Source: Microlunatus sagamiharensis (GTDB taxonomy: Bacteria; Actinomycetota; Actinomycetes; Propionibacteriales; Propionibacteriaceae). From it: a stretch of 64,000 nucleotides of DNA. A model generated the notes under the pieces. That model was not told the DNA's origin and made no database searches. It worked only from the letters and a program-made list of their open reading frames with translations. The stretch is taken from contig NZ_LT629799.1 in NCBI RefSeq assembly GCF_900105785.1, positions 3,534,001-3,598,000 on the forward strand. Reading direction: 5' to 3'. Of this stretch, positions 3,163 to 14,170 are shown one piece after another (the stretch's first letter is position 1; each line of letters opens with the position of its first letter). Made by a program: the position numbers and the translations under genes.

Positions 3163-3531
3163 TCAGGCCTCGCGCGCGGCGCGGAGGGCCCAGAGCACCA
3201 GCGGAACCTGAAGCGGGAGCCTCGCGAGCGTGACCGCCCGGGCCCGCGGGGTGCGCGCCAGGGTGGCCATGTGGACGTTGCCGGGGAACACCGCGACGAA
3301 CAGCGCCGCCGAGGCCAGGCCGCCGAGGTGCTGCGTCCGGGGCACGGCGACGAGGGCGCCGCAGGTGAGCTCCACCACGCCGGAGCCGAGCGCCCACGCC
3401 TTCTTGCTGCCGGGCAGCCAGTCCGGCAGCGCCGCGTCGAAGACGTGCGGCCTGACCAGGTGGATCGTCCCCGCGCTGAGCAGCAGACCCGCCAGGGCAC
3501 GGGCCGCAAGGGTTCGGCGTACGGGTCTCAT
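3163..3531 (-). CDS. DoxX-like family membrane protein
   Basis: 122 residues with four hydrophobic segments (LAGLLLSAGTIHLV; ALGSGVVELTCGALVAV; LGGLASAALFVAVFPGNVHM; LPLQVPLVLWAL). The spacing and the HxxxP/GNVHM signature are those of DoxX-type small integral membrane proteins, which in other bacteria take part in quinone-linked redox or stress responses. The specific role is unknown. The start is the ATG at 3531 behind a GGATGGGGGG purine run. It is divergent from cobG with only 51 bases between the two starts. Confidence 0.7.
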   Translation of the reverse strand: MRPVRRTLAARALAGLLLSAGTIHLVRPHVFDAALPDWLPGSKKAWALGSGVVELTCGALVAVPRTQHLGGLASAALFVAVFPGNVHMATLARTPRARAVTLARLPLQVPLVLWALRAAREA

Positions 3532-3570
3532 CCCCCCATCCTGCGCGCTGGACGGGCGCGCGACGGCTCC

Positions 3571-3576
3571 TACGAT
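3571..3576 (+). promoter_or_regulatory. Candidate -10 element for leaderless cobG transcript
   Basis: TACGAT fits the actinobacterial -10 pattern TANNNT and ends 6 bases before the cobG ATG at 3583, the spacing typical of leaderless mRNAs. No Shine-Dalgarno sequence precedes this ATG, which supports the reading. Confidence 0.45.
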
Positions 3577-3582
3577 GACCAG

Positions 3583-4686
3583 ATGCCCCCCGAAGCCCCG
3601 CGCGACGACCGCTGCCCCGGAGTCCTCCGGCCGCACGAGGCCGCCGACGGGGCGATGGTCCGGATCCGGGTGCCCGGCGGGCAGACGACCGGCACGGCGT
3701 TGCGCGAGCTGGGACGCCTGGCGACCGAGTACGGCAGCGGGCTGCTGCAGCTGACCTCGCGCGGCAGCGTCCAGGTCCGCGGGCTGCCGGAGGTGGTCCC
3801 CGAACCGTTCGAGGACGCCGTCGCCCGCGCCGGCTTCCTGCCCTCGGCCGCGCACGAGCGCGTCCGCAACATCGTCGCGTCCCCGCTGACCGGGCTGCGC
3901 GGCGGCCGGGCCGACCTGCGCCCGCTCGTCGCCCGCCTGGACCGGGCCCTGGTCGCCGAGCCGCGCCTGGCCGACCTGCCCGGCCGCTTCCTCTTCGTGC
4001 TGGACGACGGCCGCGGCGACGTGGCCGGGCTGGGGTGCGACCTCGGCTACCGCGCCCTCGACGCGGAGCGCGGCGAGCTGCTGGTCGGCGAGCGCCGCCG
4101 CGTACGCCCGGTGCGGCTCGGCGAGGCGACGGAGGCGCTGGTGGACCTGGCGCTGCGGTTCGTCGAGCGCCGCGGCGACGCCTGGCACGTGCGCCAGCTC
4201 AGCGAACCCCTCGTCGAGGCCGGCGAGGGCACCGAGACCGACCTCCGCCTGCCCTCGACCCCGCAGCCGGCCGGCGCGACCGGCCCGCACCTCGTCGTGG
4301 ACGTGCCGCTCGGCCTGCTGTCCCCGCCCCAGGTGGAGGCGGTGCACGCGGTCGCCGACGGCGGCCCGGTCGTGGTCACGCCCTGGCGCAGCCTCGTGCT
4401 CCCCGACGCCGCGGCCTCCCGGAGCGCGCTCGAGGCGGTCGGCCTGGTGACCGACCCCGACGACGCCTGGAGCCTGGTCAGCGCCTGCGTCGGCGCGCCC
4501 TGGTGCGCCAACGGCCGCTCGGACACCCGCACGCTCGCCGCGCAGCTGGTCCGCGCCGGCGGCCCCGGCGTCCGTACGCACCTCAGCGGCTGCGAGCGCC
4601 GCTGCGGCGCGCCCACCGGACCCCACACCGACCTCGTCGCCCCCACGCGGGTCGACCTCGCCGAGCTCGTGCTCGCCCGTGCCTGA
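3583..4686 (+). CDS. cobG: Precorrin-3B synthase (CobG), nitrite/sulfite reductase-like
   Basis: 367 residues. In the aerobic cobalamin pathway CobG uses O2 to convert precorrin-3A to precorrin-3B. It shows two ferredoxin-like half-domains of the nitrite/sulfite reductase family (residues about 25-90, GLLQLTSRGSVQVRGLP, and about 220-290). The cluster-binding cysteines are near the C-terminus: CVGAPWC (about 305-311) and CERRCG (about 343-348), which bind the 4Fe-4S cluster. The start is the ATG at 3583. The stop overlaps the cobH start by 8 bases, so cobG, cobH and cobIJ form one operon. No cobalamin riboswitch fits in the short upstream region. Confidence 0.9.
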   Translation: MPPEAPRDDRCPGVLRPHEAADGAMVRIRVPGGQTTGTALRELGRLATEYGSGLLQLTSRGSVQVRGLPEVVPEPFEDAVARAGFLPSAAHERVRNIVASPLTGLRGGRADLRPLVARLDRALVAEPRLADLPGRFLFVLDDGRGDVAGLGCDLGYRALDAERGELLVGERRRVRPVRLGEATEALVDLALRFVERRGDAWHVRQLSEPLVEAGEGTETDLRLPSTPQPAGATGPHLVVDVPLGLLSPPQVEAVHAVADGGPVVVTPWRSLVLPDAAASRSALEAVGLVTDPDDAWSLVSACVGAPWCANGRSDTRTLAAQLVRAGGPGVRTHLSGCERRCGAPTGPHTDLVAPTRVDLAELVLARA

Positions 4687-6870: not shown

Positions 6871-6913
6871 GCCGGGCGCCGCGGGGGTCAGGCAGGCAGC
6901 AGGTGGGCGCCGC

Positions 6914-7849
6914 TCAGCCGGCGGCCGGCTCGTCCTCCGCGTGGGCGAACGCGCGGCGCAGAGCCGCGGCGCCCTCGGGGTCGTCCCGCTCGCCCAGGTC
7001 CAGGCAGAGGTCGCCGTCCTCCGGCGCCGGGGCGGTGGCCCAGTACCTGACGAGGTGCAGGGCCTGCTGGTCGGCCGGCGTCTGAGGCTGGTCCGCGAGC
7101 CACGCGAGGGCGCGCCGAGCCGCAGCCGGGTAGTGACGGACCACGAGCAGGTCGTCCTGCTCGGGCAGCACGACGCGGTCCAGCGAGTAGCCCTCGATCT
7201 TCGACTCCTCGAAGACCGCGCGGCTGAAGTCGGCGGAGAACATGGACGGCGACACGGGGTGCTGGAGGGCCCGGCCGCTCACCAGGAGCGTGTCGAGGAC
7301 GCCGGTGAAGACGCAGTCGACGACCTCGCAGTCCTCGATGAGCAGACGCTTCGTCGTCTTCTCGAACGTGCACGCCTCGAGCAGGCAGCCCCGGAAGGTC
7401 GCCTCGCGCAGGTTGGCCCGGTCGAAGGCGACGCGCCTCCACACGGTGCGCCGACCGTGCCACTCCCCCGTGCCCAGCGCGCGGGACCGCAGGTCGGCCC
7501 GCTTGAAGGAGCAGTCGACGACCTCCGTCCCCCAGAGCTTGAGGCCGGTCAGGCTGGCGCCGTCGAAGCGGCAGTCCCGGACGGAGCCGCCGAAGAAGCG
7601 GAGCTCCTCCAGCTGGGCGCCGGACAGGTCCAGCGACTCCCAGGCCACCCCACGCGCGGGGTCGTCCGGGTCACCGATCGTCGCCGGGGTCGCCGTCAGG
7701 GGGATCCCCCGCAGGTCGACACGCCCGCCCACGACGCCGAGACCGTCGGGCTGCGGTCCCTGACCCGTCAGCCAGGTCCGCACCGCGCGGACCGACCGCG
7801 CCGCCTCGGGGTCGTCCCAACGTCGCCTCAGCTCAGCCGCACTCGGCAC
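6914..7849 (-). CDS. Pentapeptide-repeat protein, candidate immunity protein of the adjacent RHS toxin
   Basis: 311 residues from the GTG at 7849 with an AGGAGG ribosome site upstream. Residues about 75-210 contain degenerate pentapeptide repeats with A/S/C-D/N-L/F-x-x periodicity (WESLDLSGAQLEEL, CRFDGASLTGLKL, VAFDRANLREATFRG), which would form a right-handed beta-helix. The C-terminal 70 or so residues are helical and acidic. It follows the RHS gene by 22 bases on the same strand, the usual place of the immunity gene in polymorphic toxin loci. Pentapeptide helices can mimic DNA, so an immunity role against a nuclease-type toxin is attractive, but it is an inference from position. Confidence 0.75.
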   Translation of the reverse strand: MPSAAELRRRWDDPEAARSVRAVRTWLTGQGPQPDGLGVVGGRVDLRGIPLTATPATIGDPDDPARGVAWESLDLSGAQLEELRFFGGSVRDCRFDGASLTGLKLWGTEVVDCSFKRADLRSRALGTGEWHGRRTVWRRVAFDRANLREATFRGCLLEACTFEKTTKRLLIEDCEVVDCVFTGVLDTLLVSGRALQHPVSPSMFSADFSRAVFEESKIEGYSLDRVVLPEQDDLLVVRHYPAAARRALAWLADQPQTPADQQALHLVRYWATAPAPEDGDLCLDLGERDDPEGAAALRRAFAHAEDEPAAG

Positions 7850-7871
7850 GGGCGTGTCCTCCTGGTGGTCG

Positions 7872-10800
7872 CTAGTCGGTGAACACCCCGATACCGGGTC
7901 CCAGGTGCTCGTACTTGGTCTGGTGCATGTCCCATTGTCGTTGGGTGGTGATGTCCCACCAGCGACCGGTCTGGAAGTCCATCACGTCGGGCCCGTAGTG
8001 GCCGGCCGGCGTCGTGTAGAGGTGCTGCAGGTCGGGGTCCGCGTCGATGTACCCCTTGGCCTGGCGGTCGATCATCGTCCCCCGGGTCGCGGAGGCCACC
8101 CGCGGGTTGTTCAGGTTGGCCAGCTCCCTGCGCGACGCCGCGATCGCCTGGTTGTCGAAGTCGGCCTTGGCCGCCGCCACGTGGTCGGCGATCCGCGCCG
8201 TGTCGTGGTCGACCGGGCTCGGTCGCGCCGGCACCGCGGGCACGTCGTCGAGGGTGCGGACGGCGGTCGACCCCGCTCCCTGCGTGGCGGCGCTCGAGCC
8301 GGCGCCGGAGGCCGTCGCGCGGGCGCCCGAGCTCGCGAGCGTGCTGATGCCGTGGGCGGCTGCCCCGCCGGCGCCGCCCGTGACCCCGCCGACGACGGTC
8401 CCCGCGGCGGTGCTCTGCACGAAGCCGGTGACCGAGTGCGGGCCCGGCCCGACGAGGTAGCTGCCGCCGCCGTTCACCGCGCCCTCGGCGGCGCCCCCCG
8501 CGGCACCGGCCGCCATCATCCCGCGCAGGCCCGTGCCCGCTGTCCGGGCGACCGCACCGCCGACCCCGAAACCGACCGCACCGGCCGCGCCGGAGATCGC
8601 GACCTGGCCCCAGTTGACCTCGCCGGTCGTCGCCTTCTGGATGATCGTGTCGGCGCCGGCCGAGATCAGCATGACGCCGACCGGACCACCGACGCCGGTC
8701 GCGACGAGGACGCCGCCGGCGACGACCATCGCGCCGCCGGCGACGTACTCCCAGTTGTCCTTCAGCCATCCGCCGACCGCGCTGGTCGCCGCCCTGAACG
8801 TGCCCCCGATGCCGTTGTCGTCGCGGTACTGCTGCAGCTCCGCGTCGGTCACCGGTCGCAGGCCCGCCGGGTCGAGGGCGTGCACGGGGTCGTTCCCGGC
8901 GTAGGCGTACGGGTTGCCCGACCAGCCCGCACCCGTCACCGGGTCGAGCGGGTCGACGGACAGGAAGCCGTGGGTGGCCGGGTCGAAGACCCGGGCACCC
9001 ATCCACTCCAGCCCGTCCACGCTGACCTCGCCCGAGGCCCCGACGGACGTCGCCCCGAGGTCGGCCACGGTCGCGGCCGGCGCGACGGCGCTCCACGGGT
9101 CGGCGGTCGTGGCCCGGCCGGTGCGCCAGCCGGGTGCGGTCCAGGAGGACCCGTCGGGTCCGCCCACGCCGGTCACCGCACCGGTCCCGAGCACGGAGGT
9201 CTCGCCCACCAGGACCGGAGCGCCGACGAAGGCGGCCGTGTCCCAGAACAGCTCGGTGCCGTCCACCGAGGCCAGCTCCCCGAGCGCGTCGGTGTGCACC
9301 CGCGTCCGCCGGACCCCGTCACCGGAGCGCCGGACGATGCCGGTCAGGTAGCCGCTGGGGTTCCAGACGAGCTCGGTGGCCGTCCCGCGGTCGTCCCGGG
9401 TGGACGTGCGACGCCCTGAGGCGTCGTAGGTGTGGGTCGTCCGCCTCCCGGCGGCGTCCGCCGTCGCCAGCAGCTGGCCCGCCGCGTCGTGCACGTGCTC
9501 GAGCACCGAGGCCGCGTCACCGACGACGCGCGACTCGCGGGCGAGGCGGCCGGCGGCGTCGTACTCCCAGCGCTGCACGGAGGTGGTCGCGTCGGAGGTC
9601 GAGCGCACCTCGACGAGCTGGCTCGCACCGTCGTAGGTGTAGCGGGCGGTGCTGCTGCCCGCGGCGTCGGCCCGGCGGACGGCGCGCACCCGGCCGTCGT
9701 CGTCACGCTCGACCTCGGTCCGGGCCACCCCGGCTTCGTCGGTGACGCTGTGGGCGACCACGAACCCGTCGCGGTGCTCCCACGCCTGGATGAGCCCACC
9801 GGCCACCGCGGAGACGAGCCGGCCGGCCGCGTCCCGGTCGAAGGCGGCGCGCCCGAGCACCGAGTGGTCCACCGCGACGAGGCGTCCCGCGGCGTCGTAG
9901 CCGTACGAGGCCGACGCGCCGTCCGGGGTCGTCATCGACGTGCGGCGACCGTCCGCGTCGTAGGTCCAGCGGAGGGTCCGGCCGTCCCGGCTGCGGCGGA
10001 CGAGGTGGCCCCGGCCGTCCCACTCGAGCTCGTGCTCGACCCGCCGCTCGCCGGTGTCGTCGCTGACCCGGACCGTGCGCCGGCGCAGGTCGCGCGTCAG
10101 GGCGGTGACGGTGCGACCGTCGACGGCCATCGAGGCCGGTCGTCCCGCGCCGTCGTAGGTCCAGGTCGTCCGGCGCCCGTCCGGGCTCTCCTGCCAGACG
10201 AGCCGGCCGGCGGCGTCGTAGCCGGCGCGCGTCGTGCGCCCGACGGGGTCGGTCTCGGCGACGCAGCGGTTCATCGCGTCGAACACGCGCCGCGTCACGC
10301 CGCCCAGCGGGTCGGTGATCGTCGTCGCGCGGCCGTTGGCGTCGTACTCGTAGGTGGTCGTGCCGCCGTTGCCGTCGACCACGGCGACGAGCTGGCCGGC
10401 GTCGTCGTAGCGGAAGGTGCGCCGGCCGAGGCGCGGCTCCTCGGTCGCGACGACGCGGCCGGCCAGGTCGTGCTCCCAGCGCAGCGTGCCCGCGCCGGGC
10501 GCGCGGTGGAGGACGACGCGCCCGCAGACGTCGTAGGTCGTCCGCGCCACCTCACCGGTCGGCAGGGTCTGGGTCACCGGGCGGCTGTCGAGGTCGTAGC
10601 CGATGGTCGTGACGGCGCCCAGGGGGTCGGTGATGCGCGCAAGCCGGCCGCACGCGTCGTACGCCCGGCGGGTCACGGCACCCGTGGGACTGGTCACGGC
10701 CAGGACCCGGCCGGCGGCGTCGCGCTCGACCAGGGTCAGGCCGCCGTCCGCGTCGAGGGCCTCGACGGGTCGCCCGCAGCGGTCGTAGGTGTAGACGGCG

Positions 10801-13484
10801 GCCGTCCCGTCCGGCTGCCCGACGCTGGTCGCCCGACCGAGCGGGTCGACCACGAGCACGGCGGAGCCGCCCTCGTCACCGACCTCGGCGCGGCCCGCGG
10901 CGACGTCGACGTCGACCCCGGTGCGGACGCCGGTGGGGTCGATGCTCGCGAGGGCGTGGCCGGCCGCGTCGCGCTCCTCGCGCCAGACGCCCCCGGTGGG
11001 GTCGGTCGTCGCGACCAGGCGCGAGAGCGCGTCGTGGGCGAACTCCCACCGCGACCCGTCGGGGAGCGTCACCGTCGCCAGGTTGCCGAGGTCGTCGAGC
11101 TGGCGGTCGAGGCGCCGGCCGAGCGGGTCGACGGTCGCCGTCTCCTCGCCGTGCGTGCCGCGCTCGAGCGTGGTGCGCGCGCCGAGCGGGTCGACGGTCG
11201 CGACCCGGCGGCCGGCCGCCGTGTGCTCGTGGCGCCAGGTGCCGCCGTCGGGGTCGGTGCGCTCGGCGAGCAGGCCCGTCGCCTCGTCGTAGGCGTACGT
11301 CGTGCGGTGCCCCGACGGCGTGATCGCGGCGGTCACCCGGCCGAGCGCGTCCCGCTCGAGGCGCGCGGTGGCGCCGTCGGCGTTGGTCGTGCCGACCAGG
11401 TCGCCGCGCTCGTCGTAGGTGAGGCGGACCACGACGCCGGTCGGGTCGACGACCTCGGTGAGCAGGCCGTCCGTCCAGGTCAGGCGGGTGAGGCCGCCCT
11501 CGGGGTCGGTCACCGTCGACGGGTTCCGGAACCTGCCCTCGTACGCGTACCCGGTGACCGCACCCTGCTCGGCCACCACGGTGGTGACGCGGTCGAGCTC
11601 GTCGTAGCCGTAGGTGAGGTCGGCGCCCGAGGGCGTGACCGTGCGGACCCGGCGGCCGCGCTCGTCGTAGGCGTGGACCGTCGTGGCCCCGTCGCGCTCG
11701 GTGAGCAGCACCGGGTTGCCCCAGCGGTCGTACGAGGTGGACTGGCGCCGCTCCTCGGCGTCGACGACACCGACCAGGCGGCCGCGCTCGTCGTGGATCC
11801 AGGTGTTGGAGCGCGAGCCGTCCTCGTCGGAGACGACGGTGACGCGGCCGGGGAGGTAGACGAAGCGCGTCGTGCGGCCGAAGGGCGAGCGCTGGCGGGT
11901 GACCCGGCCCTGCGCGTCGTAGACGTTCTCCGCCTCCACCACGCCGTCGGCGTCGACCACGGCGGCCACCAGGCCGTCGTCGCCCCAGCGGTAGGTCCGC
12001 GTCCCGCCGGCGCCGGTCGCCGCGACCAGGCGGGCCTCGGCGTCGTAGGCGTACGCCACGCTGCGGCCGTCGGCGGTGCGGGCACCGACCACGCGGTCCG
12101 CGGCGCCTGCCTCGCCGCCCAGGCCCCAGACGAGCTCGACCCACTGACCCCTGGCGTGCGTCAGCCGGAGGACCCGGCCGGCCTCGTCGCGGGTGACCTC
12201 GACGTACGCCCGGGCCGCGCGCGGGCCGGTCCCGTACGCCCGCAGGTCGCCGCCGTCGCCGAGGCGCCACCACGAGCCCTCGTTGCCGGTGACGACCAGC
12301 TCGCCGGTGGCCTCCTCGCGCCCCAGCCACAGGCTCTCGCCGACCGCGCGGTCCCAGCCGGTGCCGAGGCGCGGGAAGAAGATCTGGCGGCCGTCGGGCA
12401 GCACCAGGCGGGCGCGCTCGTCGTCGAGCCGCAGCCCGGCCTCGACGACCGAGGACCAGCCCGGGCCGAAGGCTCCCGCACCCGGGGCCTCGGGCGTCTG
12501 CGTGGCCTCGGTGCGGAACGAGTTGTACGTGCGCGACAGCACCAGCGTCGACGCGGCGCCCGGGAACACGACGTCGGTCTCGGTCTCGACGAAGTTGCCG
12601 GTCGCGGTGTTGACGGGGTCGTCGGCGTAGCCGGACGTCGGCGGGTGGCCCTGCGCCTGGACGGCGTCGATGACGAGGTCCTGGCGGGTGACGGTGACGT
12701 TCGCGGCCTGCAGCGCGGCCTGGACGGCGCTGTTCGACAGGGTCGAGACCTCCCCCTCGCCGCCGGCGGCCTTGAAGGCGTCGGCGACCGTGGTCGCCCA
12801 GGTCACGTCGATGTCGTTGGCGCTCAGCCAGGCGTCGAAGCCGGTGAAGACGCCCGACGCGCTCAGCGTCCCCCAGCGGCAGCGGGCCTGGAAGTTCTGG
12901 TACGCGGTCCGCAGCGCGGCGGGCCGCGGGCGCAGCGTGTCGTTCGCGCCCTTCGACCCGGTGGCGAAGGTGCGCAGGTTCGACGGGCGGGCCGAGGAGG
13001 TCCCGCCGCCGCCGGAGGAGCCGCCGCCGGGCGCCGGGGTCTCGCGCGACCGGTTGACCGCGGGCGACACCGCGACCGAGATCGGGTCCGCGGGCGGGCC
13101 CACGGGCGGGTCGTCGCCGCCGGTCGCCCAGTCCCAGCCCTGCTCGAGCAGGTTGCGGTTGTCGTGCTCCTTCTTCCACTCCCGCGCCTTCTGGCGGCGC
13201 TCCTGCTCCTTGTGCGCCTCCTCCTTGAGCCGCTCGGCCGCGGTGGCGACCTCGCGCAGGCGGTTGGCGAGCTCGGTCGCGTCGCCCGCCGCGGTCTGGG
13301 CGTTCGCCTTGAAGAGCTCGGAGAAGTGCCCCTTGAAGTCGGTCATCGCCGTCGTCACCCACGACGAGCGCTGCCCGGCCTGGGCGTCGACCGCCGAGGC
13401 CGCCGAGCGGCAGGCGGTGATGAGCGCGGTGGCCGTCCCCTCGTCGAAGGGGACGTCCTCCTCGATGGCACCCAGGTCAGGCAT
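7872..13484 (-). CDS. RHS/YD-repeat polymorphic toxin with type VII-type N-terminus
   Basis: 1870 residues from the ATG at 13484, chosen for its GGAGGA site; the frame opens 12 codons earlier. Residues 1 to about 120 form a helical WXG100/LXG-like region, then a Pro/Gly-rich linker. A DUF6531-type block follows (DPVNTATGNFVETETDVVF), then more than twenty YD repeats (about 420-1500; YDAAGRL, YDERGR, DPLGR variants) building the RHS cage. The cage closes with NPYAYAGNDPVHALDPAGL, the conserved cleavage region. After it come a Gly-rich hydrophobic stretch (about 1560-1690) and a soluble tail ending in GPDVMDFQTGRWWDITT. That tail is the variable toxin domain and may be a PD-(D/E)xK-like nuclease, tentatively. 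A WXG100 gene is upstream and a candidate immunity gene downstream. Confidence 0.88.
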   Translation of the reverse strand: MPDLGAIEEDVPFDEGTATALITACRSAASAVDAQAGQRSSWVTTAMTDFKGHFSELFKANAQTAAGDATELANRLREVATAAERLKEEAHKEQERRQKAREWKKEHDNRNLLEQGWDWATGGDDPPVGPPADPISVAVSPAVNRSRETPAPGGGSSGGGGTSSARPSNLRTFATGSKGANDTLRPRPAALRTAYQNFQARCRWGTLSASGVFTGFDAWLSANDIDVTWATTVADAFKAAGGEGEVSTLSNSAVQAALQAANVTVTRQDLVIDAVQAQGHPPTSGYADDPVNTATGNFVETETDVVFPGAASTLVLSRTYNSFRTEATQTPEAPGAGAFGPGWSSVVEAGLRLDDERARLVLPDGRQIFFPRLGTGWDRAVGESLWLGREEATGELVVTGNEGSWWRLGDGGDLRAYGTGPRAARAYVEVTRDEAGRVLRLTHARGQWVELVWGLGGEAGAADRVVGARTADGRSVAYAYDAEARLVAATGAGGTRTYRWGDDGLVAAVVDADGVVEAENVYDAQGRVTRQRSPFGRTTRFVYLPGRVTVVSDEDGSRSNTWIHDERGRLVGVVDAEERRQSTSYDRWGNPVLLTERDGATTVHAYDERGRRVRTVTPSGADLTYGYDELDRVTTVVAEQGAVTGYAYEGRFRNPSTVTDPEGGLTRLTWTDGLLTEVVDPTGVVVRLTYDERGDLVGTTNADGATARLERDALGRVTAAITPSGHRTTYAYDEATGLLAERTDPDGGTWRHEHTAAGRRVATVDPLGARTTLERGTHGEETATVDPLGRRLDRQLDDLGNLATVTLPDGSRWEFAHDALSRLVATTDPTGGVWREERDAAGHALASIDPTGVRTGVDVDVAAGRAEVGDEGGSAVLVVDPLGRATSVGQPDGTAAVYTYDRCGRPVEALDADGGLTLVERDAAGRVLAVTSPTGAVTRRAYDACGRLARITDPLGAVTTIGYDLDSRPVTQTLPTGEVARTTYDVCGRVVLHRAPGAGTLRWEHDLAGRVVATEEPRLGRRTFRYDDAGQLVAVVDGNGGTTTYEYDANGRATTITDPLGGVTRRVFDAMNRCVAETDPVGRTTRAGYDAAGRLVWQESPDGRRTTWTYDGAGRPASMAVDGRTVTALTRDLRRRTVRVSDDTGERRVEHELEWDGRGHLVRRSRDGRTLRWTYDADGRRTSMTTPDGASASYGYDAAGRLVAVDHSVLGRAAFDRDAAGRLVSAVAGGLIQAWEHRDGFVVAHSVTDEAGVARTEVERDDDGRVRAVRRADAAGSSTARYTYDGASQLVEVRSTSDATTSVQRWEYDAAGRLARESRVVGDAASVLEHVHDAAGQLLATADAAGRRTTHTYDASGRRTSTRDDRGTATELVWNPSGYLTGIVRRSGDGVRRTRVHTDALGELASVDGTELFWDTAAFVGAPVLVGETSVLGTGAVTGVGGPDGSSWTAPGWRTGRATTADPWSAVAPAATVADLGATSVGASGEVSVDGLEWMGARVFDPATHGFLSVDPLDPVTGAGWSGNPYAYAGNDPVHALDPAGLRPVTDAELQQYRDDNGIGGTFRAATSAVGGWLKDNWEYVAGGAMVVAGGVLVATGVGGPVGVMLISAGADTIIQKATTGEVNWGQVAISGAAGAVGFGVGGAVARTAGTGLRGMMAAGAAGGAAEGAVNGGGSYLVGPGPHSVTGFVQSTAAGTVVGGVTGGAGGAAAHGISTLASSGARATASGAGSSAATQGAGSTAVRTLDDVPAVPARPSPVDHDTARIADHVAAAKADFDNQAIAASRRELANLNNPRVASATRGTMIDRQAKGYIDADPDLQHLYTTPAGHYGPDVMDFQTGRWWDITTQRQWDMHQTKYEHLGPGIGVFTD

Positions 13485-13628
13485 GCGGATCCTCCGAGCG
13501 GTTCGGGCGCGCAGCACCACGGGGCCGCGCGGCGGCCGGGCTGCGTCGGTGACGCGATGGCGGGTGGAGCAGAGATGGTGGAGCGAGGAGCACGGGCGGC
13601 GCGCAGAGAGGCGCTGCCTCGATGGCCG

Positions 13629-13671
13629 GGACCGGGGCCGGGTCGCAGGTGCTGCGACCCGGCCGGGGTCC
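13629..13671 (-). terminator. Intercistronic hairpin between the WXG100 and RHS genes
   Basis: A 13-bp stem (13636-13648 with 13652-13664) on a 3-base loop is extended past a GG/GG internal loop by 5 more pairs (GGACC/GGTCC). It lies in the 226-base gap after the WXG100 stop. It could terminate most transcripts there and so keep RHS expression below that of its small partner. Confidence 0.6.
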
Positions 13672-13710
13672 GGTGGCCGGGGGACGCCGCGTACGGGCGT
13701 CCCGGGCGGA

Positions 13711-13995
13711 CTAGCTGCCGCCGCCGGCGGTCATGATGTTGCTGGAGATCTGCTGGAGCTGGCCGCGGAGCTCCTCGAGCTCGGTCTTGGCCTTGTCGAG
13801 CGCCGACTTGGTCTCCGGCCAGGTGGAGCTGCGGAACCGCTCGGCGAGGGGACCGTCCCAGTTGTTGGGGTCGGACAGGGCCTGGCCCTGGGTGTTGAGG
13901 TTGTTGATCTCGTTGGTGAGGCCGCCGTTGATGATCGACTGCATCTGCGTGATGGCCGACTTGGCCTGCTCGCTGGAGAGAACGCGTCCGGACAT
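13711..13995 (-). CDS. WXG100-family (EsxA-like) protein
   Basis: 94 residues predicted to form a helical hairpin with the central WDG motif (NNWDGPLAERFRS), matching the WXG100 family in length and layout. Such proteins are secreted by, or act as chaperone partners for, type VII (ESX) secretion substrates. It sits 226 bases upstream of the RHS gene, whose own N-terminus is WXG100/LXG-like, so the two probably pair for export. No ESX machinery gene (EccC and others) lies in this window. The start is the ATG at 13995 behind GGGAAG. Confidence 0.85.
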   Translation of the reverse strand: MSGRVLSSEQAKSAITQMQSIINGGLTNEINNLNTQGQALSDPNNWDGPLAERFRSSTWPETKSALDKAKTELEELRGQLQQISSNIMTAGGGS

Positions 13996-14170
13996 GTGAA
14001 CCCACTTCCCGGCCGGCCCGTGCCGACCACCCTCGATGGACTAGTAGCCAGGCTCAGGACCCGACTTCGCCTGATCCTGGCAGAACCAGGGGTCACCCCC
14101 CGCGCCCTCAGCAGAAGCACGGGAACTCTTCATCGAGCCGCCGTACGCCCGTCATCGAGGGACCTCCGGG

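What the first reader, a model, noticed from the sequence alone, without database searches (positions are those of the whole stretch)
6914..13995. Three-gene type VII-type polymorphic toxin locus with a pentapeptide-repeat candidate immunity protein
The order is WXG100 gene, RHS protein with an N-terminal WXG100/LXG-like region, then a pentapeptide-repeat gene 22 bases after the toxin. Known immunity genes sit in this slot, but pentapeptide proteins as immunity factors are not standard. DNA mimicry by a pentapeptide helix would suit a DNA-cleaving toxin.
Basis: inference. Interest (0 to 1): 0.72.

Follow-up and report, generated by a model that had tools for sequence, protein, structure and literature searches.

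The report
Pentapeptide-repeat immunity to RHS toxin
A GC-rich actinobacterium carries a large secreted-type toxin whose tip resembles a DNA- or RNA-cutting enzyme, and the gene right behind it encodes a coil-shaped repeat protein that accompanies this tip in several bacterial phyla and is therefore probably its antidote, though nobody has tested it.

Summary
Three minus-strand genes are real: WXG100-like (13995-13711), RHS (13484-7872) and a pentapeptide-repeat protein, PRP (7849-6914), 22 bases behind the RHS stop with an AGGAGG. The block is absent from the closest relative found. The toxin is the last ~117 residues: no Pfam or NCBIfam match; AlphaFold gives a restriction-endonuclease-like topology with invariant PD...DxT, W, H, Y. 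The K of PD-(D/E)XK is missing and fold matches are weak (Z up to 5). I found nine loci with this tip in five phyla; in eight the next gene is a PRP of one family, on T7SS-type RHS, other RHS, or T6SS PAAR-like carriers. The ninth has none. Three RHS relatives with the same body but other tips have other genes there. Tip and PRP trees share their main splits. Four PRP copies exist apart from the tip, one intact, three broken. The PRP is therefore very probably the tip's immunity protein rather than a carrier part. DNA mimicry is not supported: the repeats are near neutral, and one member has net charge +2. Toxicity, protection and binding are untested. Eight paper searches listed no PRP described as immunity protein of a polymorphic toxin.

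The parts
13711..13995 (-). WXG100-like putative secretion partner, 94 aa
   Evidence: PF06013 23.8 bits, cut-off 27.3; a 63% identical gene stands before the RHS gene in same-genus genome G010
7872..13484 (-). RHS protein, 1870 aa: N-terminal region, RHS repeats, Rhs core ending at DPAGL, pre-toxin region, toxin domain
13125..13484 (-). N-terminal 120 residues, weakly WXG100-like
   Evidence: PF25547 E 0.048, below cut-off; aligned with L010 and L011
8226..8858 (-). Glycine-rich pre-toxin region after the DPAGL motif; its first part is shared with three RHS relatives that bear other tips
   Evidence: Alignment
7872..8225 (-). Toxin domain, about 117 residues, restriction-endonuclease-like predicted fold; conserved PD, DxT, W, H, Y (D1833, D1844, T1846, W1851, H1854, Y1858 of the RHS protein)
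   Evidence: 57% identical over 115 residues in L009; alignments A6 and A8; AF2 pLDDT 92.8; fold matches
7858..7863 (-). Shine-Dalgarno-like AGGAGG of the PRP gene, in the 22-base gap
   Evidence: Sequence printed
6914..7849 (-). Pentapeptide-repeat protein, 311 aa, proposed immunity protein: short N-terminal helices, right-handed beta-helix, C-terminal alpha/beta cap
   Evidence: PF00805 42.5 bits; AF2 pLDDT 89.7; AlbG Z 17.7, HetL 17.1, EfsQnr 16.7, MfpA 15.9
6871..14170 (.). Accessory block of about 7.3 kb between a cobIJ-like gene and a GAP-like gene
   Evidence: In G005 cobIJ (93% identical), GAP, cobM and cobL are contiguous and the WXG, RHS and PRP queries found nothing

Best explanation
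This is an accessory interbacterial toxin-immunity module. The RHS protein is probably exported by a type VII-type system with its WXG100-like partner; the RHS shell encloses the C-terminal ~117 residues, which are released after the DPAGL end of the core and reach the inside of a rival cell (all inferred from RHS biology). The toxin domain is most likely a metal-dependent nuclease with a restriction-endonuclease-like fold and a variant PD...DxT active site. The PRP gene follows in the same operon and its product most likely binds the toxin domain directly and blocks it, protecting the producer and its kin. Shown here: gene order, swapped tips on a constant carrier, co-occurrence of this tip with this PRP family on unrelated carriers in five phyla, shared main splits of the two trees, orphan PRP copies, absence of the block in the closest relative found. 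Inferred: export route, toxicity, nuclease chemistry, neutralisation, direct binding.
For: Eight of nine loci found with this domain have a same-family PRP as the next gene on the same strand: window; L009 = L019 Propionibacteriaceae UBA6122; L018 = L022 Agromyces subbeticus; L020 Actinobacteria MAG; L021 Armatimonadetes MAG; L023 Phycisphaerae MAG; L024 Flavobacteriaceae; L027 Rhizobium leguminosarum pRLN1, where the carrier is a Tox-PAAR-like protein beside DUF2169. Carriers of L009, L020, L021, L023, L024 pass the Rhs core cut-off, that of L018 the RHS_repeat cut-off. Gaps are 22, 5, 25, 6, 3 and 0 bases, one overlap of 4; the PRP start in L020 is unsure. The carrier body does not explain it: in L009 the tip is 57% identical, RHS stretches only 33-34%. 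Three RHS relatives with other tips (second RHS of the own genome L046, L010, L011) are followed by genes without a Pfam match and not by a PRP. Leave-one-out profiles: the seven PRPs score 153-245 bits, generic PRP YjcF 26-32; the seven tips 78-121.5 bits. Not in those profiles: Rhizobium PRP 101 bits, YjcF 35; Rhizobium tip 87, G218 tip 67, the three other tips under 0. Distances of tip and PRP: r 0.71, 59 of 40,320 permutations as high. Both trees hold {L020, L021, L023, L024} and {window, L019}; the actinobacterial L020 groups with other phyla in both. PRP copies apart from the tip: intact in L010; internal deletion plus a fragment in L011; split by a frameshift in R. sophoriradicis; fragment in R. 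gallicum. AF2 toxin model pLDDT 92.8; structural matches Cas4, EcoRV, PspGI, a Spirosoma endonuclease-like protein, influenza PA endonuclease.
Against: No experiment. The ninth locus (G218, L014), on a DUF6861 carrier, has no PRP: the next gene is on the other strand, and the PRP profile found nothing in the 9.0 kb held; the rest of that genome was not searched. Fold matches are weak: no Foldseek E under 0.001, best 0.34; best VIA Z 5.0, in the range that the tool warns may be only a common arrangement; the lists are dominated by many entries of one protein, influenza PA. The K of PD-(D/E)XK is absent. The window's tip is acidic (net -5) as is its PRP (net -11), so simple charge pairing does not explain binding here. 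Shared history alone could give the correlated distances. The PRP tree is flagged for a long Rhizobium branch and uneven composition of three rows. Nine loci are few, and the contig scan could only find tips that match its two patterns. A complex could not be modelled.
Confidence: 0.72

Rival explanations
1. The PRP is an immunity factor but works by protecting the target, as McbG, AlbG and Qnr protect DNA gyrase, and does not bind the toxin.
For: Among the closest solved folds are AlbG, EfsQnr and MfpA. McbG, a PRP, is the immunity protein for microcin B17 and protects gyrase (PMC10926693 passages).
Against: The toxin model is nuclease-like, not a small gyrase poison. MfpA and Qnr models score 27.8 and 27.3 bits against cut-offs of 360 and 240. 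Tip and PRP distances correlate, as expected of binding partners but also of mere shared history.
Confidence: 0.12
2. The PRP is a tip-specific chaperone or loading factor for secretion, not an immunity protein, comparable to T6SS PRP accessories (TagAB, TvpB).
For: PRPs are part of T6SS spike assembly (TvpB, PMC13373197 passages; tagAB/tagB, PMC3942780 passages); the Rhizobium carrier is a T6SS PAAR-like protein, and in R. sophoriradicis a PRP relative stands behind a PAAR gene without this tip.
Against: The PRP follows the tip across T7SS-type RHS, other RHS and T6SS carriers and is absent directly behind three RHS relatives with other tips. An intact copy persists without the tip in L010, in a row with other small genes, as orphan immunity genes do. 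The slot directly behind the toxin is the usual immunity slot (recalled).
Confidence: 0.12
3. The toxin domain is an enzyme of another kind, not a nuclease, with only a superficial restriction-endonuclease-like arrangement; the PRP may still be its antidote.
For: Best Z only 5.0, Foldseek E 0.34; the motif K is missing; a conserved W, H and Y are not part of the classical motif.
Against: Helix, strands, helix, strand in the right order, with PD before one strand and DxT in the next, as in EcoRV (recalled motif); of the 50 matches shown in each list, nearly all are nucleases of this fold or polymerases that contain one (one phosphoribosyltransferase), though mostly influenza PA.
Confidence: 0.25
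4. The PRP is an unrelated neighbour placed there by chance.
For: None found beyond the small number of loci.
Against: 8 of 9 loci in five phyla.
Confidence: 0.01

Closest known systems
RHS/YD polymorphic toxins with T7SS-type trafficking (Zhang et al. 2012, PMC3482391, passages seen)
   Same: Constant body, swapped C-terminal toxin, small gene directly behind it, displaced immunity-like genes in arrays
   Different: The toxin domain has no match in Pfam or NCBIfam; the word 'pentapeptide' does not occur in the held text of that catalogue (first 300,000 of 357,715 characters)
Tox-REase families of the same catalogue
   Same: Restriction-endonuclease-like fold (predicted here)
   Different: The motif rows seen (Tox-REase-2 to -6, -9, -10) carry a K (for example [DE]xK, ExK, EAK, ELK), here the motif is DxT with W, H, Y; the immunity partners seen in those passages include SUKH, Imm7, Imm49, Imm52, Imm54 and HEAT repeats, not PRP
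McbG, AlbG, Qnr, MfpA pentapeptide proteins
   Same: Right-handed PRP beta-helix; McbG is a self-protection protein against microcin B17
   Different: They act on gyrase; here the partner is a protein toxin domain and the PRP has its own N- and C-terminal caps; NCBIfam cut-offs are far from met
T6SS PRP accessories TagAB/TvpB
   Same: PRP genes near effector genes
   Different: Described as spike accessories tied to the carrier, whereas this PRP follows the toxin tip over unrelated carriers; no direct sequence comparison was made

Membership tests
RHS polymorphic toxin | RHS repeats and Rhs core ending before a variable tip | tested here: met
   PF05593 394 bits, TIGR03696 39.9 bits over its 32.5 cut-off, to residue 1542
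RHS polymorphic toxin | Same body, different tips in relatives, each with its own next gene | tested here: met
   Window, L046, L010, L011
RHS polymorphic toxin | Tip is toxic and the next gene neutralises it | not testable with these tools
   Needs expression experiments
Type VII secretion substrate | WXG100 partner over the family cut-off | tested here: inconclusive
   23.8 bits against 27.3; WDG motif present
Type VII secretion substrate | WXG100/LXG domain at the RHS N-terminus | tested here: inconclusive
   PF25547 E 0.048, under cut-off; LXG not matched
Type VII secretion substrate | EssC/EccC-type ATPase in the genome | tested here: inconclusive
   1418-aa FHA + FtsK/SpoIIIE protein in L047 fits an EssC (recalled architecture); EccC_a model 333.6 bits, under its 509 cut-off, and that model also rings in 9 of 14 control genomes
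PD-(D/E)XK nuclease superfamily | alpha-beta-beta-beta-alpha-beta core | tested here: inconclusive
   Predicted order fits; Cas4 Z 5.0 (rmsd 4.2, 102 aligned), EcoRV 4.8 (3.4, 97)
PD-(D/E)XK nuclease superfamily | PD and (D/E)xK residues | tested here: not met
   The two D are invariant (L024 has AD for PD), but K is T in all 7 rows of A8 and in the Rhizobium and G218 members; filed as like, not as a member
Pentapeptide-repeat proteins | Pfam PRP model and beta-helix | tested here: met
   PF00805 over cut-off; AlbG Z 17.7 (rmsd 3.7, 188 aligned)
Qnr/MfpA topoisomerase-protecting PRPs | Curated NCBIfam score | tested here: not met
   27.8 of 360 and 27.3 of 240 bits
DNA-mimic protein | Strongly acidic character kept in the family | tested here: not met
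   Net charges only, no surface: repeats 21 K+R against 23 D+E; members net -15 to +2
T6SS TagAB/TvpB accessory | Sequence membership of that family | not tested
   No model or sequence of that family was compared

The most novel reading that the evidence does not exclude
Pentapeptide-repeat beta-helices are a general immunity class that directly neutralises one undescribed nuclease toxin family carried by T7SS-type RHS, other RHS and T6SS effectors from Actinomycetota, Armatimonadota, Planctomycetota, Bacteroidota and Pseudomonadota, so that PRP self-protection reaches beyond gyrase poisons to protein toxins.
Probability: 0.55. Interest if true: 0.75.

Novelty: new variant of a known kind. 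Interest (0 to 1): 0.64.

Why it matters
PRPs are abundant and mostly of unknown function; the understood ones act on gyrase. A PRP family tied to one toxin tip across five phyla and several carrier types would give a whole group of them a testable function, add an immunity fold, and define a toxin domain that Pfam and NCBIfam do not match. It also offers a clean test of whether the PRP helix neutralises nucleases by mimicry or by ordinary interface binding.

Tried and rejected
DNA mimicry: net charges do not support it. Chance neighbour: disfavoured by the eight loci. Carrier accessory: disfavoured by RHS relatives with other tips. G221 (L013, L015), an order-level match of E 3.2e-4, was dropped: the tip profile finds nothing in L013 even at E 1e4. 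The first genome-contig scan with the single tip found nothing. Viral contigs with the tip alignment: no relative; phages with the L024 tip: no match. Plasmids with the window's PRP and the L024 PRP: no match at 1e-10; these also missed the Rhizobium PRP, so BLAST does not reach across the family. Plasmids with tips from the window, L024, L027 and G218: only R. leguminosarum. A phylum-wide search with A8 found only the own genome among 396. The PDB sequence search with A8 gave two unrelated sub-significant matches. Pfam on the seven tips gave one stray match, E 0.16. PF00805 against the own genome found nothing and so also missed P0001; I draw no rarity from it. The VIA lists are second looks at Foldseek matches, so absences there mean nothing. 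The contig scan with a PRP alignment could not be run. Eight paper searches listed no paper that I could see to describe a PRP as immunity protein of a polymorphic toxin; of the listed papers I saw passages of ten, the rest as listings only. The library lacks most subscription journals and all bioRxiv preprints, so this is no proof of novelty.
Full report
What is there. On the minus strand lie a 94-aa WXG100-like gene (13995-13711), an RHS gene (13484-7872, 1870 aa) and a PRP gene (7849-6914, 311 aa). The RHS protein carries RHS repeats and a Rhs core that ends at a DPAGL motif (read from the sequence; core match to residue 1542). The PRP gene starts 22 bases after the RHS stop with AGGAGG 8 bases before its GTG. 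GC3 of the three genes is 0.94-0.97; the tip has a lower GC (0.686) than the RHS body (0.766).

The block is accessory. It sits between a cobIJ-like gene and a GAP-like gene followed by cobM- and cobL-like genes (names from reading). In the closest relative found, G005 (cobIJ 93% identical), these genes are contiguous; in G007, G002, G011, G004 and G014 cobIJ and cobM are contiguous too. Eight of the eleven other genomes with a cobIJ match were fetched; the remaining two of the eight are G010, where neither cobM nor cobL was found within the 13 kb fetched, and G018, where the contig ends. None of the eight stretches gave a match to our PRP, RHS or WXG protein at 1e-8.

The tip is swappable. 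Three RHS proteins of the same carrier type, one more in this genome (L046) and one each in G011 (L010) and G010 (L011), align with ours through the RHS core and a glycine-rich pre-toxin region and then diverge. L011 has a weak PIN match, E 2.5e-4, under its cut-off. Behind them stand genes of 177, 131 and 169 aa without a Pfam match. The profile of our tip gives the three other tips scores below zero, and the PRP profile finds no member in the 6.5 kb around L046.

The tip and the PRP travel together. Tip matches: 2 of 198 family genomes (own, G138), 3 of 293 order genomes (own, G218, G221), 2 of 394 class genomes with a two-row alignment (own, G629), 1 of 396 phylum genomes with the seven-row alignment (own), six loci from a scan of the contigs of 84,980 species, two of them G138 and G629 again, and 1 of 72,556 plasmid records. 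The contig scan sees only tips that match one of two short patterns, so this is a lower bound. G221 was dropped as not a member. That leaves nine loci, G138/L019 and G629/L022 counted once each. In eight the next gene on the same strand is a PRP, 0 to 25 bases away or overlapping; the start of the L020 PRP is unsure. The ninth, G218, has a different carrier (DUF6861; an SH3 match under its cut-off), an opposite-strand neighbour and no PRP in 9.0 kb.

The PRPs are one family, not just any PRP. Left out one at a time, each of the seven PRPs of alignment A9 scores 153-245 bits against a profile of the other six; the unrelated PRP YjcF scores 26-32 bits. The Rhizobium PRP scores 101 bits, YjcF 35, against the full profile. 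Only this one generic PRP was used as control. Among 394 class genomes a four-member PRP profile found the own genome and G629 at 1e-20 (five candidates scored per genome), the same two that the tip found. In the genus the PRP is found in 3 of 20 genomes (own, G010, G011), in the family in 4 of 198 (G138 added).

Co-evolution. Pairwise distances of the eight tips and eight PRPs correlate (r 0.71; 59 of 40,320 permutations as high). Maximum-likelihood trees share the splits {L020, L021, L023, L024} (95/95 and 97/97) and {window, L019} (94/95 and 98/96); L020, an actinobacterium, groups with Armatimonadota, Planctomycetota and Bacteroidota in both. Agromyces joins window and L019 in the PRP tree, whereas the tip tree leaves it open next to Rhizobium. 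The program warns of the long Rhizobium branch and of uneven composition in three PRP rows. Joint transfer of a pair predicts this; shared history without contact would give the same picture.

Copies apart from the tip. G011 keeps an intact PRP (55% identical) two genes behind another RHS gene, next to a KptA-like gene. G010 keeps one with an internal deletion and a further fragment. R. sophoriradicis has one split by a frameshift behind a PAAR gene; R. gallicum has a fragment. This is the pattern of displaced immunity genes. It also shows that a PRP relative can sit next to a PAAR gene without this tip, which a reader may count for the accessory rival.

What the tip may do. AF2 with seven sequences gave pLDDT 92.8, pTM 0.85. 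The order is helices, a short strand, strand 80-82, strand 87-92, helix 94-103, strand 110-114. P78-D79 stands before one strand and D90-x-T92 in the next, with W97, H100 and Y104 invariant in the seven rows (L024 has A for P78). Foldseek found no match under E 0.001; most of the 50 shown of 103 are influenza PA or influenza polymerase, with a few restriction-enzyme-like proteins and one phosphoribosyltransferase. VIA: Cas4 Z 5.0, EcoRV 4.8, PspGI 4.3, a Spirosoma endonuclease-like protein 4.2, influenza PA about 4. This agrees with a restriction-endonuclease-like nuclease but is weak by the tool's own warning, and the K of the motif is absent. I therefore call it nuclease-like, not a member.

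What the PRP may do. AF2 with seven sequences gave pLDDT 89.7: N-terminal helices, a PRP beta-helix, a C-terminal alpha/beta cap. AlbG, HetL, EfsQnr and a Clostridium PRP are the nearest natural solved folds, tied with designed solenoids; MfpA follows at 15.9. Direct binding and blocking of the tip is the simplest reading. Net charge does not support mimicry of DNA. Target protection in the manner of McbG is possible but less likely for a nuclease.

Secretion. The genome has an EssC-like protein with FHA and FtsK/SpoIIIE domains about 250 kb away; the EccC model stays under its cut-off there and also rings in 9 of 14 control genomes. The WXG100-like partner falls just under its Pfam cut-off and the RHS N-terminus well under. 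Type VII export is inferred.

Known work. Zhang et al. 2012 list many toxin and immunity families; the held part does not use the word pentapeptide (passages). McbG, a PRP, is the microcin B17 immunity protein (PMC10926693 passages). QnrB1 data speak against simple G-segment DNA mimicry (PMC7897471 passages). T6SS PRPs are spike accessories (PMC13373197, PMC3942780 passages). Searches listed no paper that I could see to name a PRP as the immunity protein of a polymorphic toxin.

I re-scanned the carriers and the dropped match, gaps and neighbourhoods.

Verdict. A real, accessory toxin-immunity module of known general kind, with a toxin domain that Pfam and NCBIfam do not match and an immunity fold not found in the catalogue text I could search. 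The pairing is well supported by comparison; the mechanism is inferred.

Noticed in passing
L046 (own genome, C1 372000-378500), RHS ORF ending at 3831 on the minus strand: Second RHS gene of the same carrier type with another tip and a 177-aa gene (3355-3888) behind it; neither tip nor gene has a Pfam match
   Followed up: partly
L010 5524-6075: KptA/Tpt1-like RNA 2'-phosphotransferase gene (PF01885) between the gene behind another RHS toxin and the orphan PRP
   Followed up: no
L011 3405-3809 and 6913-7335: Two similar-looking 134/140-aa genes stand in the row of genes behind an RHS with a PIN-like tip, one near each PRP remnant
   Followed up: no
L014 3357-5570: The same toxin tip on a DUF6861 protein in another family of the order, without a PRP; neighbours look by eye like phage-tail or contractile-injection genes (the two scanned have no Pfam match)
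   Followed up: partly
L057 5643-6871: R. sophoriradicis plasmid: PRP relative split by a frameshift, behind a short PAAR gene, without the toxin tip
   Followed up: partly
window 9432-13736 (+) and other antisense ORFs: Very long open frames opposite the RHS gene, probably a by-product of GC-rich third positions rather than genes
   Followed up: no
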